A stretch of 64,000 nt of DNA from a virus: positions 124,001 to 188,000 of IMG/VR virus record IMGVR_UViG_3300035698_035366; one strand, written 5' to 3'. Below, piece after piece: positions 2 to 24,280 of this stretch. The notes beneath the pieces were generated by a model. It did no database searches. It worked only from the letters and a program-made list of their open reading frames with translations, and was not told the DNA's origin. How positions within the stretch are numbered: position 1 is the first letter of the stretch; each line of letters starts with the position of its first letter. Both the position numbers and the translations under genes were made by a program.

Positions 2-1426
2 CACCGCTTTGAAACAAGAGATGCACAAACAGAACAAGATTTTGGTGGACGACCAAAACCAAAATTCCTGTTTGGTGTGCGATTCATAACTCAGTTCAAT
101 TCACCGGCCTTTGGACAATTTTCTGACCAAAATGGCGACGTCGCTTTTATGGTTAAAACTGTTGATAAACCAAAAATTGATTTTGACGTCACAGTTATGA
201 ATCAATATAATAAGCGTAGATTAGTTCAAACAAAAATAAAATATCAACCAATTAATATGCGTTTTTATGATTCAGTAGATGAAAGACTATCAAAATTTAT
301 ATTATCATACATGCAGCATTACTATGGTGATCATTTAGCAGAAAATGTTGATCAATGGAGTTATGATAAAATTTCTTCAGAATTCAATAATGGTGTAGAT
401 GGTTGGGGTTACAGAGGTATTTCCCAACCAGGCCGCTCAAATTCTGCCCCTTTCATGTCACATATTGAACTTTATCAATTCTTTGGTGGTAATTTTTCTC
501 GTTGGGTTTTTGTTAACCCATTGATTACTAGCTTTGATCATGATAATGTTGATGCAGAATCGGGCAATGTTGCACAAGAAGCAAGTATGTCAGTCGAATT
601 TGAAGGACTTCTTTATAGAGAAAAAAATATCCCATTAGCAACATCTAAAGTTGGTCGCGCAGCAATTGATTTCTTCAAGCTAGAAGAGTTCGCTGATAAT
701 TTAGAATTACCTGATGCACTACAAATCGGCGGTTTAAATCTCGGTGGTATTAGTGATCTTGCATCGGCTAGATCAGTTTTTGGTCGAGAACTTGGTAGGA
801 AAACAATCGAAGTTTTGAGCGGTAGCCCAATCGATACATCAGGCATTTCTAGAACATCATCATCGGCATTAACACCGTTTGGTAACTTTGATTTTGGTTC
901 AGTTATTGTTGGTGAAGGTGTTGATGGATTAATTAGTAGCGGTGTAAGTGGATCGACAGGTGCGGTTTCAAACGCCATTAGAGCTGGTACTGCAAACGTT
1001 GCACGTGATGCTCTTAACTTGGTTAGAGGTAATATTCTTGGAACAGGTGGTACTCGACTCAATGACGGCGCTGCCTCGTTTTGTGCTGACCCAGCAACAG
1101 GATCTGGGACTTCACCGTCCGCATCCCCGGCAGGTGCCGCCAAAGCTGTTGGTCAAACAGGTGGGTTTTCCACACCAGGAGTAGCAGCAGATGAAAATTC
1201 AGCAGTTGTACAGTTTGCAGGAGCGGTGACAACTGGTGTTGATACAGTGGTCAAAGGGGTTGGTGATGGTTTACAGTTTGGATTAGAGACCATCGGGCTT
1301 AGAAATTCCCAATCTACTACAGGAAACCAAATTGGAGTAACAGCTAAACCATTTGTTGACCCAGATTCATTAACGCCTTCACAACGGGCTATTCGGGCAC
1401 AAAACCAATTTCCGGATAACACCTGA
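2..1426 (+). CDS. Tail-tube-fold baseplate protein, 5' partial
   Basis: The reading frame is open to the left edge, so the true start lies outside the window; a GTG at 77 is internal. The visible 474 residues begin with a segment RPKPKFLFGVRF followed by a region with MVKTVDKPKIDF and NQYNKRR, the pattern of gp19-type tail-tube folds in T4-like baseplate and tube-initiator proteins. The C-terminal half (from about residue 230) is Gly/Ser/Ala-rich and looks like a flexible extension. It would act at the junction of baseplate and tail tube. Its stop overlaps the start of gp4 by one base. The exact T4 equivalent (gp48, gp54 or an extra tube protein) cannot be settled by eye. Confidence 0.6.
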   Translation, partial: HRFETRDAQTEQDFGGRPKPKFLFGVRFITQFNSPAFGQFSDQNGDVAFMVKTVDKPKIDFDVTVMNQYNKRRLVQTKIKYQPINMRFYDSVDERLSKFILSYMQHYYGDHLAENVDQWSYDKISSEFNNGVDGWGYRGISQPGRSNSAPFMSHIELYQFFGGNFSRWVFVNPLITSFDHDNVDAESGNVAQEASMSVEFEGLLYREKNIPLATSKVGRAAIDFFKLEEFADNLELPDALQIGGLNLGGISDLASARSVFGRELGRKTIEVLSGSPIDTSGISRTSSSALTPFGNFDFGSVIVGEGVDGLISSGVSGSTGAVSNAIRAGTANVARDALNLVRGNILGTGGTRLNDGAASFCADPATGSGTSPSASPAGAAKAVGQTGGFSTPGVAADENSAVVQFAGAVTTGVDTVVKGVGDGLQFGLETIGLRNSQSTTGNQIGVTAKPFVDPDSLTPSQRAIRAQNQFPDNT

Positions 1427-1857
1427 TGGCTAAGTATGGTCATGTGCATAGTGGTGAATTTACGCCCAGCAATCCGGCAAAATATAAAGGTTCATATCCA
1501 ATAACATATAGAAGTTCATGGGAACTCACTGTATTCAACATGTTTGATTCGCACCCCAACGTTTTAGAATGGGCAAGTGAAAGCATAAAAATACCTTATA
1601 TGCACCCATTTAAGGGTAGAATGTCATTTTATATCCCAGACATTGTTGCAAAATTCGTGGATAAAAAAGGAAAAACTCATGTTGAGGTTATCGAGATAAA
1701 GCCTTTGAAAGAAACTTTGGCAGAACATGCCAAATCCAGGTATGATCAAGCACAATTAGCGGTTAATCATGCTAAATGGAAATCGGCTCAAGCTTATTGT
1801 GCAAAAGTCGGTATGAAATTTAGGATTTTAACCGAAAAACAAATATATAGAAATTAG
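1426..1857 (+). CDS. 4: Head completion protein gp4 (nuclease-like)
   Basis: This 143-residue protein matches the T4 gp4 (also called gp50) family in length and motifs: YRSSWELTVF near residue 28, then IPYMHPFKGRMSFYIPD and EVIEIKP, an arrangement of a TnsA-like PD-(D/E)XK nuclease (Glu, Asp, ExK). gp4 acts after DNA packaging to stabilise or trim the DNA end so that the neck can attach. It starts on the last base of the preceding tail gene and is followed by the terminase genes, so it sits in a head-completion and packaging block. The same YRSSWE/ExKP motif set reappears in the putative homing endonuclease at 19082-19975. Confidence 0.8.
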   Translation: MAKYGHVHSGEFTPSNPAKYKGSYPITYRSSWELTVFNMFDSHPNVLEWASESIKIPYMHPFKGRMSFYIPDIVAKFVDKKGKTHVEVIEIKPLKETLAEHAKSRYDQAQLAVNHAKWKSAQAYCAKVGMKFRILTEKQIYRN

Positions 1858-18033: not shown

Positions 18034-19062
18034 ATGGCAAAAGACCAATGCACACTAGTAATTGAAGATGAAGTCAACATTAAGTTCAACAATTTAGATC
18101 CAGCAACAAGGCGGAAAGTTGTAACAGAACTAAAATTCTTTGTCCCTTATGCACGTCACACACCAAGCTTCAAGCTTGGTAGATGGGATGGCACTATAAG
18201 CTTAGCCACAACAGGTGGTCGTACTTTCTTCAACCTTCTTGACCGTGTCCTTCCCATAATTATGGATGAAGGTTATGAAATTAAAATTGAGGATCAGCGG
18301 GCTAGTCTTGAACTAGAATTTCCAAAGGCAACGGTTGATATGTTCTCCGATACATTATGGCCAAAAGGTCATATGAATGAGGGAGAACCAATCATTCTAC
18401 GGGATTACCAAGCAGATGTTATTGATGCGTTCTTGCGCAACCCACAGAGTTTACAAGAGATTGCCACCGGCTCCGGTAAGACGATCATAACGGCGGCTCT
18501 TTCAAAACTTTGTGAACCATATGGAAGAACAATTGTTGTTGTCCCAAATAAGGATCTAGTCACACAGACAGAAGCTGATTATATCAACCTTGGACTTGAT
18601 GTTGGTGTATTTTTTGGTGACAGAAAAGAATGGAATAAAACTCATACTATTTGTACATGGCAATCATTGTCGGTTCTTGATAAAAAATCTAAAAATAAAT
18701 TGGCCCTAACCGATGAAGAACTAAACGATTTCCTCAACAATGTTCAAACTATTATTGTTGATGAATGTTTTCACGGGGATTCGTTGGTATTAACCCCAAA
18801 TGGATATATACCTATAAAAGATATTAAATCGGGAGATATTGTTGTTAATTATGATGAAAAAGAGAAATTATTCAAAAACGATGTTGTTAAACAAATATAT
18901 GAAAATTTAACAAATTCATCTAAGGAAGAAATGCTTGAACTTGTATTTGATAATGGTAAAATAATTAAAGTTACAGCTAATCACAAATTCCTAACAAATA
19001 AAGGCTGGATTAGGGCCGATGAATTAAATGAACATCTAACCATTATTGACATAAATACATAA
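18034..19062 (+). CDS. uvsW: UvsW helicase N-terminal part fused to split-intein N-half
   Basis: The 342-residue product is two parts. Residues 1-244 are the N-extein: UvsW N-terminal domain (FFVPYARHTPSFKLGRWDG), Q-motif and Walker A (ILRDYQADVI; ATGSGKT near 150) and the start of motif II, IIVDE. At residue 245 a Cys begins an intein: CFHGDSLVLTPNGYIPI is block A and TANHKFLTNKGW is block B. The frame then stops with TAA after 98 intein residues. The rest of UvsW is encoded at 20077-20805 behind the intein C-half. UvsW is the recombination helicase that unwinds branched DNA and R-loops. ATG 18034 was chosen because T4 UvsW starts at the equivalent residue; the ribosome binding site is weak. 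Confidence 0.9.
   Translation: MAKDQCTLVIEDEVNIKFNNLDPATRRKVVTELKFFVPYARHTPSFKLGRWDGTISLATTGGRTFFNLLDRVLPIIMDEGYEIKIEDQRASLELEFPKATVDMFSDTLWPKGHMNEGEPIILRDYQADVIDAFLRNPQSLQEIATGSGKTIITAALSKLCEPYGRTIVVVPNKDLVTQTEADYINLGLDVGVFFGDRKEWNKTHTICTWQSLSVLDKKSKNKLALTDEELNDFLNNVQTIIVDECFHGDSLVLTPNGYIPIKDIKSGDIVVNYDEKEKLFKNDVVKQIYENLTNSSKEEMLELVFDNGKIIKVTANHKFLTNKGWIRADELNEHLTIIDINT
18766..19059 (+). other. Split intein, N-terminal fragment (IntN)
   Basis: This segment encodes 98 residues from Cys1 to the end of the gene. It has the Hint-fold blocks A (CFHGDSLVL) and B (TANHKF, the TxxH motif that drives the N-S shift). It lacks blocks F and G, which are found at 19972-20076. Length is in the usual range for IntN fragments of phage split inteins such as gp41-1 (88 residues). 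Confidence 0.9.
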
Positions 19063-19081
19063 AGCTAAAGGAGATGTATTT

Positions 19082-19975
19082 ATGCCAAAAAAATTTAATA
19101 TAATCAGATTTAATCAATTATTAATGAAACATAATCAAATATTACAAGCCAAATATATCAACAAACAAATAATGCTTACTAATGGAGTTGAGATTATCAC
19201 AATTCCGGAAGTTAGAAAATGTAAACGTCGGGTAATGAATGAATCTATTGAATATATTACCAGATTTGATTTAATATATTCCGGTAATGAAAATTTAGCT
19301 AAAAACGCATTACATGAAGCAAAATCTAAATCAGCATCTGTTGGTGGTAAGAAATGTCAAGAAAAGCATGGTGATTTAATAAAGAAAAATCTTAACACTG
19401 GCATACCTTGGAACAAAGATACTCAAGGTAATTATCCATATTCATTTCCATGTACCAAACAAACCAGAGAAAAAATAAGTAAAGCTAATTCAGGAAAACA
19501 TAATGGAATGTATGGTAAGAAAATGTCAGAATTTGATAAGAGTTATCGAAGCGAACTAATGAAAAATAAAATCAAAAATGGTGAATTTACACCTAATAGT
19601 AATAATAGAAATACTCATTGGGATTCGCATTATGATGGTAATAAATATAGAAGCTCATGGGAAGCACTTTATCATGCTAGTGATCAGGCGGCAGAATATG
19701 AAACTCTTCGAATACCATACAATATAAATGGTGTTGAGCGAATTTATATAGTTGATTTTGTAAATCATTCTACTAAAAAGGCAATCGAAGTAAAACCAAA
19801 ATCACAATTACAAAATTGCTATGAGAAAATAGAAGCATTAAAAGAATGGTGTTATAATAATAATTATGAAATGATAATAGCTGATGAAGATTATCTTCAA
19901 AAAATAGATAAAACAAAAATTAATTTTTCGTTGTTTGATGAAAAAACATTAACTAAAATTGGTAATATTAGATGA
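19082..19975 (+). CDS. Freestanding homing endonuclease-like protein between intein halves
   Basis: This 297-residue protein has its own ribosome binding site (AAAGGAGAT) and lies exactly between the two intein halves. It carries a NUMOD3-type DNA-binding motif near residue 137 (KISKANSGKHNGMYGKK). The C-terminal third (YRSSWEALYHASDQ, then IPYNINGVERIYIVDF, then AIEVKPK) is a PD-(D/E)XK nuclease like TnsA and like gp4 at 1426. It presumably cuts intein-less uvsW genes so that the whole split-intein locus is copied in. Similar arrangements (fractured genes with an endonuclease at the break) are known for gp41 and nrd genes from marine metagenomes, where the enzyme is Vsr-like; this nuclease has different motifs. 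Stop overlaps the next ATG (ATGA). Confidence 0.8.
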   Translation: MPKKFNIIRFNQLLMKHNQILQAKYINKQIMLTNGVEIITIPEVRKCKRRVMNESIEYITRFDLIYSGNENLAKNALHEAKSKSASVGGKKCQEKHGDLIKKNLNTGIPWNKDTQGNYPYSFPCTKQTREKISKANSGKHNGMYGKKMSEFDKSYRSELMKNKIKNGEFTPNSNNRNTHWDSHYDGNKYRSSWEALYHASDQAAEYETLRIPYNINGVERIYIVDFVNHSTKKAIEVKPKSQLQNCYEKIEALKEWCYNNNYEMIIADEDYLQKIDKTKINFSLFDEKTLTKIGNIR

Positions 19976-20076
19976 AATTAGTTTCTACAAAAATTATTGA
20001 AAAACCAGAAACCGTATATAATTTAGAAATCGAAAATGATCATAATTATATTGTTGAAGGAGCAGTTGTTTCAAAT
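19972..20076 (+). other. Split intein, C-terminal fragment (IntC)
   Basis: This segment encodes 35 residues with a start Met, block F, and a terminal Ser-Asn followed by Cys+1 at 20077. The length agrees with known phage IntC fragments (about 35-40 residues). Confidence 0.9.
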
Positions 20077-20808
20077 TGTCACATGGCAAAGGCTGATGTT
20101 CTAAAAGGTCTTCTAACATCTGCATTCAAGGATTGTCCAATTCGTTGGGGGTTAACCGGGACCATTCCAAAAGAAGATCACGAATTCCTTTCAATTCTTT
20201 CAAGTATTGGCCCAGTCGTTGGAAGCCTAGCAGCAAAAGATCTTCAAGACATGGGTGTTCTTTCAAACTGTCATGTTGAGATTTGTCAACTTCAAGATCA
20301 GCAAGTATTTGGTGATTATCATTCAGAGCAAAAATTCTTATCAGAAAACCCCAACCGTTTAGATTGGGTCTCAAAATTTGTTGAAAATATTTCTAAAGAT
20401 GGCAATTCTTTAATTCTTGTAAATAAGATAGCGACGGGTGAAGCGTTACAAGCAGCAATTCCAGATTCAGTGTTTATATCAGGCAAAGTCAAAAGCGTTG
20501 ATCGAAAAGACGAGTATGATGCAGTATCGTTGGAAGATGGTAAAGTAATCATTGCAACTTATGGAGTTGCAGCCGTTGGAATTAACATACCGCGTATCTT
20601 TAATTTGTTCTTGTTTGAGCCTGGCAAATCCTTTGTCCGGGTTATTCAAAGCATTGGTCGCGGACTACGTAAAGCAAAAGATAAGGATTATGTTCAAATT
20701 TATGATATAACATCTAGTTGTAAATTCAGTAAGAGACATTTAACAGCTAGAAAACGTTTTTATAAAGATGCTGGGTACCCTTTTCGTGTAACCAAAGTTA
20801 AAATATGA
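19972..20808 (+). CDS. uvsW: Split-intein C-half fused to UvsW helicase C-terminal part
   Basis: The product is 278 residues: 35 intein residues, then 243 residues of UvsW. The intein part has block F (VYNLEIENDHNYIVEGA) and ends VVSN before Cys+1. The C-extein opens CHMAKADVL, which completes the DECH box, and continues with motif III (WGLTGTI), a lobe-2 core (ATYGVAAVGINIPR) and motif VI (QSIGRGLRKAKD). It ends in a basic tail. The ATG is coupled to the stop of the endonuclease gene. The penultimate intein residue is Ser, not the usual His, which could slow but need not prevent splicing. Spliced UvsW would be 487 residues (T4: 503). Confidence 0.9.
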   Translation: MKLVSTKIIEKPETVYNLEIENDHNYIVEGAVVSNCHMAKADVLKGLLTSAFKDCPIRWGLTGTIPKEDHEFLSILSSIGPVVGSLAAKDLQDMGVLSNCHVEICQLQDQQVFGDYHSEQKFLSENPNRLDWVSKFVENISKDGNSLILVNKIATGEALQAAIPDSVFISGKVKSVDRKDEYDAVSLEDGKVIIATYGVAAVGINIPRIFNLFLFEPGKSFVRVIQSIGRGLRKAKDKDYVQIYDITSSCKFSKRHLTARKRFYKDAGYPFRVTKVKI

Positions 20809-23421: not shown

Positions 23422-23696
23422 CAAACTTAAAAAAAATGCAATATCAAGAAAAAAGAACTCAAGAGGAAATTGAGGCGGCTAAGCCCGATCCAATTCCTCT
23501 ACCATTTGTTCAAGCCAAAGAAGCTGTTACTGTTGTTGGTACCGATAATCCAAAGCATCAAGAGACAGTAATAAAACACGACCGAGAAATAAAGAAATTG
23601 ACAAATCAATTACGTAATGCTATGTTAACTATACGTAATATGGAAAATAGAATTAAAGTATTAGAGAGAGAACGACAAAGCGCAGCAAGATGGTAA
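23418..23696 (+). CDS. Small coiled-coil protein
   Basis: This 92-residue protein starts at an ATGA overlap with the zinc-finger gene and itself overlaps the DnaE-like gene. Residues 48-88 form a predicted coiled coil (EIKKLTNQLRNAMLTI with heptad spacing). The first half has a Pro-rich linker. No function recognised. Confidence 0.65.
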   Translation: MTNLKKMQYQEKRTQEEIEAAKPDPIPLPFVQAKEAVTVVGTDNPKHQETVIKHDREIKKLTNQLRNAMLTIRNMENRIKVLERERQSAARW

Positions 23697-24280
23697 AAAC
23701 GGTAACAGATATTGACATTGATTTTGGCGGTCGAGATAATGTTTTGGAATTAATTCCTCACATCACTGCAAGCCGGTTAGATGGAAATATGCTTGTCAAA
23801 CACAATGTTGGGGTTTATCTCCAGGAAATACCAATGGACCCAATAACTGGGTTATCCACTATTCCATATCAAGAAGCAGAAGAACGTGGATATTTTAAGT
23901 TTGATTTCCTTAATGTCCGGGCTTATGGTTTGGATCAAATCGAAGATGAAGATCATTTATTAAGACTTATTGATCAAGAACCAATTTGGGATATGTTGCG
24001 TTATCAAGATATCACTAACCAACTATTCCAAGTTAACGGAGAGGAAAATTTCCGTCTATTGCAATTAATGCACCCGAAATCAGTTGAACAACTAGCAATG
24101 ACTTTGGCATTACAACGACCCGGAAAACGGCATTTAGTTGGGAAATCATGGGAAAAAATTGAAGAAGAAGTTTGGGATGCCACTGGCGATGGTTATGTCT
24201 TCAAGCGCAGTCACGCTACTGCTTACGCGATAGCGATTGTGGTGCAATTAAATTTATTAACGGAACAAGCGATTGGATGA
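23690..24280 (+). CDS. DnaE-like (DNA polymerase III alpha) fragment
   Basis: This 196-residue protein looks like a miniature of bacterial DNA polymerase III alpha. It has, in DnaE order, DIDIDFGGR (the paired catalytic Asp motif), KHNVGVYL, YFKFDFLNVRAYG, LFQVNGEENFRLL with PKSVEQLAMTLALQRPG, and YVFKRSHATAYAIAI. The PHP, OB and most palm/finger regions are absent, so it is far too short for a working polymerase (about 1,100 residues). I recall the same mini-protein in cyanophages. It may act as a regulator or a host-replisome mimic. It forms an overlapping operon with the genes before and after. Confidence 0.8.
   Translation: MVKTVTDIDIDFGGRDNVLELIPHITASRLDGNMLVKHNVGVYLQEIPMDPITGLSTIPYQEAEERGYFKFDFLNVRAYGLDQIEDEDHLLRLIDQEPIWDMLRYQDITNQLFQVNGEENFRLLQLMHPKSVEQLAMTLALQRPGKRHLVGKSWEKIEEEVWDATGDGYVFKRSHATAYAIAIVVQLNLLTEQAIG

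What the first reader, a model, noticed from the sequence alone, without database searches (positions are those of the whole stretch)
18034..20808. UvsW helicase fractured by a split intein inside its DECH box
The uvsW gene is broken between the GAA and TGT codons of the DECH motif. The upstream gene ends with 98 residues of intein (Cys1 block A, TxxH block B) and a stop. The downstream gene starts with 35 residues of intein (block F, terminal Asn) followed by Cys+1 and the rest of the helicase. Ligation would restore DECHMAKAD, comparable to T4 UvsW DECHLATGK, and a 487-residue protein. Split inteins with a gene break are known for gp41, NrdA, NrdJ and IMPDH from marine phage metagenomes; I know of none in UvsW. 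Placement in the catalytic box means unspliced UvsW is certainly inactive, so splicing is a built-in switch.
Basis: partly seen in the sequence, partly recalled or inferred. Interest (0 to 1): 0.95.

Follow-up and report, generated by a model that had tools for sequence, protein, structure and literature searches.

The report
Phage helicase gene split by intein
In this giant phage the repair helicase UvsW is made as two half-proteins that a split intein should weld together, with the gene for a DNA-cutting homing enzyme lying between the halves; it belongs to a large, previously unremarked family of mobile elements that always hit the same catalytic spot of uvsW.

Summary
ORF 18034-19062 is UvsW residues 1-244 plus a 98-residue IntN. 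ORF 19972-20808 is a 35-residue IntC plus UvsW residues 245-487. The break lies in motif II (DE|CH). This is the known 'fractured gene' arrangement. It is not unique in uvsW: Salmonella phage S16 and kin, Proteus phage PM2, Prevotella Lak phages and about 75 distinct environmental phage alleles carry it at the same site.
Comparisons support a mobile element. Near-identical uvsW genes exist with and without it (S16/STML-198; L010/L036). Near-identical elements sit in diverged uvsW genes. Both intein halves are under strong purifying selection (dN/dS about 0.09), and the phage has no other uvsW. Decayed-endonuclease and contiguous mini-intein alleles nest among the split ones, and one contiguous clade keeps a scar of the endonuclease, so splitting is reversible. 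In this clade all 44 sampled IMG/VR empty alleles read DEVH, so the +1 Cys apparently travels with the element.
Trans-splicing is very likely and untested. The 'built-in switch' is unsupported. Verdict: new member of a known kind, with an unusually informative family.

The parts
18034..18765 (+). N-extein: UvsW residues 1-244, Walker A (ATGSGKT) and motif II up to Asp-Glu
   Evidence: ResIII E 3e-15, phrog_16259 E 9e-54
18766..19059 (+). IntN, 98 codons: Cys1 (block A), TANHK (block B); stop TAA 19060-19062
   Evidence: TIGR01445 E 1e-11 on the 98 aa alone; conserved in 13 aligned alleles
19050..19084 (+). Leader signal of the endonuclease gene: ATAAATAC (T4-late-promoter-like) in an inverted repeat ATAAATACAT / ATGTATTTAT; Shine-Dalgarno AAAGGAG (19067-19073) in the loop, start codon in the stem
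   Evidence: z -4.1; hairpin in 6 sequences; motif in 57/63 alleles with the endonuclease, 2/11 without; conserved in different reading frames
19082..19975 (+). Free-standing homing endonuclease gene, 297 aa: N-terminal helical part, NUMOD3, C-terminal TnsA-like PD-(D/E)XK nuclease (E194, D225, E236-x-K238)
   Evidence: NUMOD3, TnsA-like N above cutoff; catalytic residues conserved in 49; AlphaFold pLDDT 89; best PDB match TnsA 1t0f, probability 1.0
19972..20076 (+). IntC, 35 codons: block F (DHNY), terminal Asn; start ATG overlaps the endonuclease stop (ATGA)
   Evidence: (TIGR01443 E 2e-5)
20077..20805 (+). C-extein: Cys+1 (TGT 20077-20079) and UvsW residues 245-487, helicase C domain; stop 20806-20808

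Best explanation
This is a mobile 'fractured gene' element, IntN + endonuclease gene + IntC (1311 bp, 18766-20076), inserted between Glu and Cys of motif II of the only uvsW of a jumbo phage. Two separate polypeptides are made, UvsW(1-244)-IntN and IntC-UvsW(245-487). The intein halves associate, and the standard Cys1 / TxxH / Asn / Cys+1 chemistry joins the exteins into an active 487-aa UvsW (inferred). The TnsA-like endonuclease cuts intein-free uvsW alleles at the same site in co-infecting phages; repair copies the whole element with a few flanking bases, including the +1 Cys codon (inferred from before/after allele pairs and element-extein incongruence). The endonuclease probably has its own expression signal inside the element (inferred). 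When the endonuclease decays the intein stays, because uvsW needs it, and the halves can fuse back into a contiguous mini-intein (indicated by scars in relatives).
For: Intein and UvsW profile hits to both halves. Same order and site in S16, PM2 and Lak-B4 and in 79 distinct alleles. All 151 loci from the endonuclease and IntN scans carry the uvsW element, except that 3 are truncated contigs that still run into uvsW. No other uvsW in the record. Intein dN/dS median 0.093 over 118 pairs, also about 0.1 where the endonuclease is gone. Before/after pairs: L010 against empty L036, flanks 94-95% nt identical; S16 against empty STML-198, 95.3% and 98.5%. Horizontal movement: L103/L104 exteins 77% but inteins 100% and endonuclease 99.9%; L139/L144 75% against 99.7/99.9%; L061/L016 exteins 96-99.9% but element 67-78%. 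Intein presence changes at least 13 times on the extein tree, at least 6 forced by well-supported branches. Decay and re-fusion series nested among split forms. TnsA-like nuclease fold.
Against: No splicing, cleavage or homing was observed; everything is comparative. The penultimate IntC residue is Ser, not the usual His (also Ser or Ala in relatives, His in S16), so splicing rate cannot be guessed. The best TnsA match has E 6e-3 and low TM-score. The ATAAATAC motif is not enriched elsewhere in this phage, so its use as a late promoter is unproven. Most relatives are metagenome contigs, and only the best 80 matches per scan were examined.
Confidence: 0.9

Rival explanations
1. Genes in pieces: the halves associate and work without ligation, as with the mobE-split NrdA (Friedrich et al. 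2007), and the intein stubs are remnants.
For: A precedent exists for an endonuclease-split phage enzyme that keeps function as two chains (cited in PMC3322345 and PMC10448857).
Against: Cys1, TxxH, block F and terminal Asn are conserved in both halves, dN/dS is about 0.09 even where the endonuclease is lost, and contiguous alleles keep the full intein. A helicase cut inside motif II is unlikely to work unligated.
Confidence: 0.04
2. Dead gene: the element has inactivated uvsW.
For: The break is in the catalytic box; many phages live without a close UvsW homologue (general knowledge).
Against: Both exteins are intact open frames with helicase profiles, no second copy exists, and selection on the intein halves is strong.
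Confidence: 0.03
3. Built-in switch: the split intein is kept because splicing regulates UvsW activity.
For: Conditional splicing is known for some inteins (for example mycobacterial DnaB, PMC6195587, listed).
Against: Patchy presence among close relatives, empty alleles 95-98% identical, recent horizontal transfer and conserved-site targeting are what a selfish homing element gives without any regulatory benefit.
Confidence: 0.05
4. Assembly or frameshift artefact that breaks a contiguous intein.
For: Metagenome-derived sequence; contiguous alleles exist.
Against: A second contig is identical, the same split is in isolates S16, STP4-a and PM2, and 894 bp of coding sequence lie between the halves.
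Confidence: 0.01

Closest known systems
Fractured genes with split inteins (Dassa et al. 2009, NAR 37:2560; not held in the library, known from its title, citations and memory)
   Same: Conserved phage DNA-metabolism gene broken by a split intein with a free-standing endonuclease gene between the halves
   Different: Target is motif II of uvsW; the endonuclease is TnsA-like with NUMOD3, not the Vsr-like family named there. Whether uvsW is among the eight gene types of that paper could not be checked
Split uvsW of Salmonella phages S16, STP4-a, SEA1, CF-SP2 and of Proteus phage PM2 (GenBank, annotated as two helicase ORFs plus a hypothetical protein)
   Same: Same site, same order, homologous IntN (about 50% identity to the window in the alignment), homologous endonuclease (40-42% over the C-terminal two thirds), homologous IntC
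   Different: T4-type UvsW rather than jumbo-phage type; no ATAAATAC leader; a near-identical empty allele is known in isolate STML-198
Split PolB intein with HNH endonuclease in Pseudomonas jumbo phage MIJ3 (PMC6892783)
   Same: Fractured gene in a jumbo phage of the PA5oct group, a relative by UvsW
   Different: Other gene, other intein, other endonuclease class
gp41-1, NrdJ-1 and IMPDH-1 split inteins used as ligation tools (PMC7090010)
   Same: Split inteins that splice in trans, from metagenomic sources
   Different: Activity demonstrated there, not here; other host proteins
T4 I-TevI-type endonuclease control (late promoter plus hairpin over the ribosome site; from memory)
   Same: ATAAATAC box in the 5' arm of a hairpin that holds the start codon
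   Different: Seen only in sequence; not all relatives keep the hairpin; motif not enriched in this phage

Membership tests
Intein (Hint fold, class 1) | Nucleophile at position 1, block B TxxH, block F, terminal Asn, C/S/T at +1 | tested here: met
   C1, TANH, DHNY, N, C+1, conserved in relatives
Intein (Hint fold, class 1) | Penultimate His in block G (common, not universal, so not disqualifying) | tested here: not met
   Ser here, Ser or Ala in most relatives, His in S16
Split intein | Two separate ORFs, each with one intein part and one extein | tested here: met
   stop at 19060, new start at 19972, 894-bp gene between
Split intein | Trans-splicing activity | not testable with these tools
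   Indirect only: dN/dS 0.09, single uvsW copy
Fractured-gene arrangement (Dassa 2009) | Endonuclease gene between the split-intein halves of a broken conserved gene | tested here: met
UvsW helicase | Homology to T4 UvsW over both helicase domains | tested here: met
   contiguous relative model best matches 2oca
Vsr-like (EDxHD) homing endonucleases | Vsr-related nuclease domain | tested here: not met
   TnsA-like domain, no Vsr match listed
TnsA-like PD-(D/E)XK nuclease | Profile and fold match with E / D / ExK residues conserved | tested here: met
   (30.1 bits, cutoff 26.5), (fold E 6e-3)
Homing endonuclease | Cuts the empty allele and promotes copying of its own element | not testable with these tools
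   Indirect: before/after pairs and incongruence

The most novel reading that the evidence does not exclude
Fracture of uvsW is a reversible phase of a homing cycle: the element enters uvsW alleles that lack a usable +1 residue (DEVH) and brings its own +1 Cys by co-conversion, so each transfer rewrites a residue of the helicase's catalytic box; after endonuclease loss the two genes fuse back into one gene with a contiguous mini-intein, the reverse of the usual contiguous-to-split view of split-intein origin.
Probability: 0.6. Interest if true: 0.72.

Novelty: new member of a known kind. Interest (0 to 1): 0.58.

Why it matters
It adds uvsW motif II as a heavily used fractured-gene site with a TnsA-like endonuclease, and a family that shows every stage at one site: empty, split with endonuclease, split with decayed endonuclease, re-fused. 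It offers dozens of new split-intein pairs to test as ligation tools. Isolated Salmonella phages with and without the element (S16, STML-198) make homing of a split intein, never followed in a phage cross as far as I know, directly testable.

Tried and rejected
- Unique to this phage: rejected, same arrangement in isolates and many contigs.
- Vsr/EDxHD endonuclease, expected from the fractured-genes literature: rejected for this gene; an EDxHD-like nuclease seems to sit in a different, Walker A element of relatives (read by eye only).
- Late-promoter use by this phage: TATAAATA and ATAAATAC are not enriched in window or genome; the motif stays as a signal of the endonuclease gene only.
- First extein identities for L103/L104 (67%) were wrong because some relatives carry a second intein in Walker A; recomputed after Walker A (77%).
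- Structure of the assembled intein: the contiguous relative L012 gave low confidence in the intein part, so not used as evidence.
- Bacterial genome relatives: one scan, a single unrelated-looking match.
- Endonuclease against PDB by sequence: no match.
- Literature: no open paper found that links UvsW with a split intein; Dassa 2009 not held.

Full report
Observation. The two half genes are there exactly as described. ORF 18034-19062 encodes 244 residues of UvsW ending IIVDE, followed by 98 residues CFHGDS...DINT; ORF 19972-20808 encodes 35 residues ending VVSN, followed by CHMAKAD... and 243 residues of UvsW in all. The intein halves pass the curated NCBIfam cutoffs for intein_Nterm and intein_Cterm. 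The exteins match PHROG helicases and T4 UvsW. PHROG families 16259 and 9690 match across the intein parts as well, so other phages already have the same truncated halves.

Between the halves lies a 297-aa gene (19082-19975) with a NUMOD3 motif and a TnsA-like N-terminal domain. Its AlphaFold model (49 sequences, pLDDT 89) best matches TnsA of Tn7 (probability 1.0, E 6e-3), and E194, D225 and E236 are invariant, K238 nearly so. By order and content the locus is a 'fractured gene': split intein plus free-standing endonuclease gene (Dassa et al. 2009; known to me from memory and citations, the paper is not held). The endonuclease stop and the IntC start overlap (ATGA).

Same element elsewhere. 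The same order at the same site is in Salmonella phage S16 and kin, Proteus phage PM2 and Prevotella phage Lak-B4. Scans of IMG/VR with the N-half, the endonuclease and IntN gave 79 distinct DE|C alleles including these. The DE|C search string was mine, but all 151 loci fetched with the endonuclease and IntN profiles turned out to be this uvsW element, except that 3 were truncated contigs, which still run into uvsW. So this endonuclease lineage appears specific for uvsW, at least among the best 80 matches per scan.

Mobility. Occupied and empty alleles exist in near-identical genes: L010 and L036 (flanks 94% and 95% nt identical, dropping to 75-80% in the 20 nt nearest the site), and the isolates S16 and STML-198 (95.3% and 98.5%). 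Conversely, L103/L104 share a 100% identical intein and 99.9% identical endonuclease in exteins only 77% identical, L139/L144 99.7/99.9% in 75%, and L091/L092 92/95% in 60.5%. L061 and L016 have exteins 96-99.9% identical and elements 67-78% identical, that is, one element replaced by another. On a tree of the exteins, presence of the intein changes at least 13 times, at least 6 forced by well-supported branches. Chimeric assembly cannot easily explain this, since a chimera at the element would itself require the element to be shared by different phages.

Selection and function. Over 118 allele pairs the intein parts have a median dN/dS of 0.093 (maximum 0.17), the same where the endonuclease is decayed (0.096) or the intein is contiguous (0.105). 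The record has no other uvsW. Together with the conserved catalytic residues this makes trans-splicing by far the best explanation. It has not been shown.

Life cycle. Six alleles are split but have only scraps of the endonuclease (L180, L182, L187, L197, L208, L220), and five are contiguous mini-inteins of 130-141 aa (L012, L018, L184, L193, L199). On the intein tree both kinds lie scattered among endonuclease-bearing split alleles (cis: 3 changes, at least 2 forced; few columns, so weakly resolved). L184, L193 and L199 still contain the IntN tail (INTYN or similar) followed by the last codons of the endonuclease read out of frame, with the IntC start codon changed to Ile or Thr. This clade went from split to contiguous. 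For L012 and L018 the direction rests on the tree alone.

The +1 residue. In the 45 intein-free alleles read from the first scan set (44 IMG/VR contigs and Phosso) motif II is DEVH in 44 and DEAH in Phosso, never DECH, whereas every occupied allele has Cys. In L010/L036 the codon pair is TGT/GTA. Inteins are expected before an existing C, S or T (PMC2814812). The likely reading is that the Cys codon is co-converted with the element. An alternative is that Val alleles are the ones that stayed free because they resist insertion. Empty alleles with DECH do exist further away (STML-198, Atu_ph07, SCTP-2, Vibrio 2.275).

Leader of the endonuclease gene. ATAAATAC is present in 57 of 63 alleles with the endonuclease and 2 of 11 without (Fisher p 2e-6, related sequences not corrected for), and it is conserved in different reading frames relative to IntN, so it is a nucleic-acid signal. 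In the window it forms the 5' arm of a hairpin (z -4.1) with the Shine-Dalgarno in the loop and the start codon in the stem; six sequences share the hairpin without two-sided compensatory changes. This resembles T4 late promoters and the hairpin control of I-TevI (memory). The motif is not enriched in this phage, so the promoter reading is tentative.

The switch idea. Insertion in a catalytic motif is normal for inteins and is usually explained by endonuclease targeting and difficulty of loss. Patchy presence, recent transfer and near-identical empty genes argue against a needed regulatory role. I give it 5%.

Novelty. The kind is known; uvsW motif II with a TnsA-like endonuclease is a member I could not find described in the open papers searched. 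Whether Dassa 2009 lists uvsW is unknown to me. The new information is the size of the family, the before/after pairs, the scar-bearing re-fused alleles and the travelling +1 Cys.

Noticed in passing
L061 1954-4579 (also L079, L086, L088, L104, L120, L145, L169, L220): A second intein element in Walker A (GAGK|...HHN|T) of uvsW. In L061 a short IntN start (CRTYDSTMDIDVG) runs on without a stop into a nuclease-like ORF, and a long IntC part follows, so uvsW is fractured twice. The near-identical L016 lacks it. It resembles atypically split inteins with a very short IntN.
   Followed up: partly
window 1426-1857: A 143-aa head-closure protein (phrog_218) is homologous to the nuclease domain of the uvsW endonuclease (hhalign probability 96.8; shared GEFTP...YRSSWE...IPY), suggesting common ancestry of a phage structural gene and a homing endonuclease.
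   Followed up: partly
G000:C1:64066-64461 (L002): A contiguous intein with an HNH-like endonuclease region inside what looks like the portal protein of the same phage.
   Followed up: no
L007 2668-5196 (Vibrio phage 159E43-1b): A contiguous intein at the same DE|CHH position of a different SF2 helicase, so motif II is a recurrent intein site.
   Followed up: no
L213 4037-5296: The IntN stop is lost, giving IntN fused to the whole endonuclease in one 419-codon frame.
   Followed up: no
phage records H175-H200: Relatives of this endonuclease (36-41% identity) lie in or next to terminase large subunit genes of T4-like phages such as HY03 and PspYZU05.
   Followed up: no
window 23690-24280: ORF with a weak match to the bacterial DNA polymerase III alpha finger domain.
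   Followed up: no
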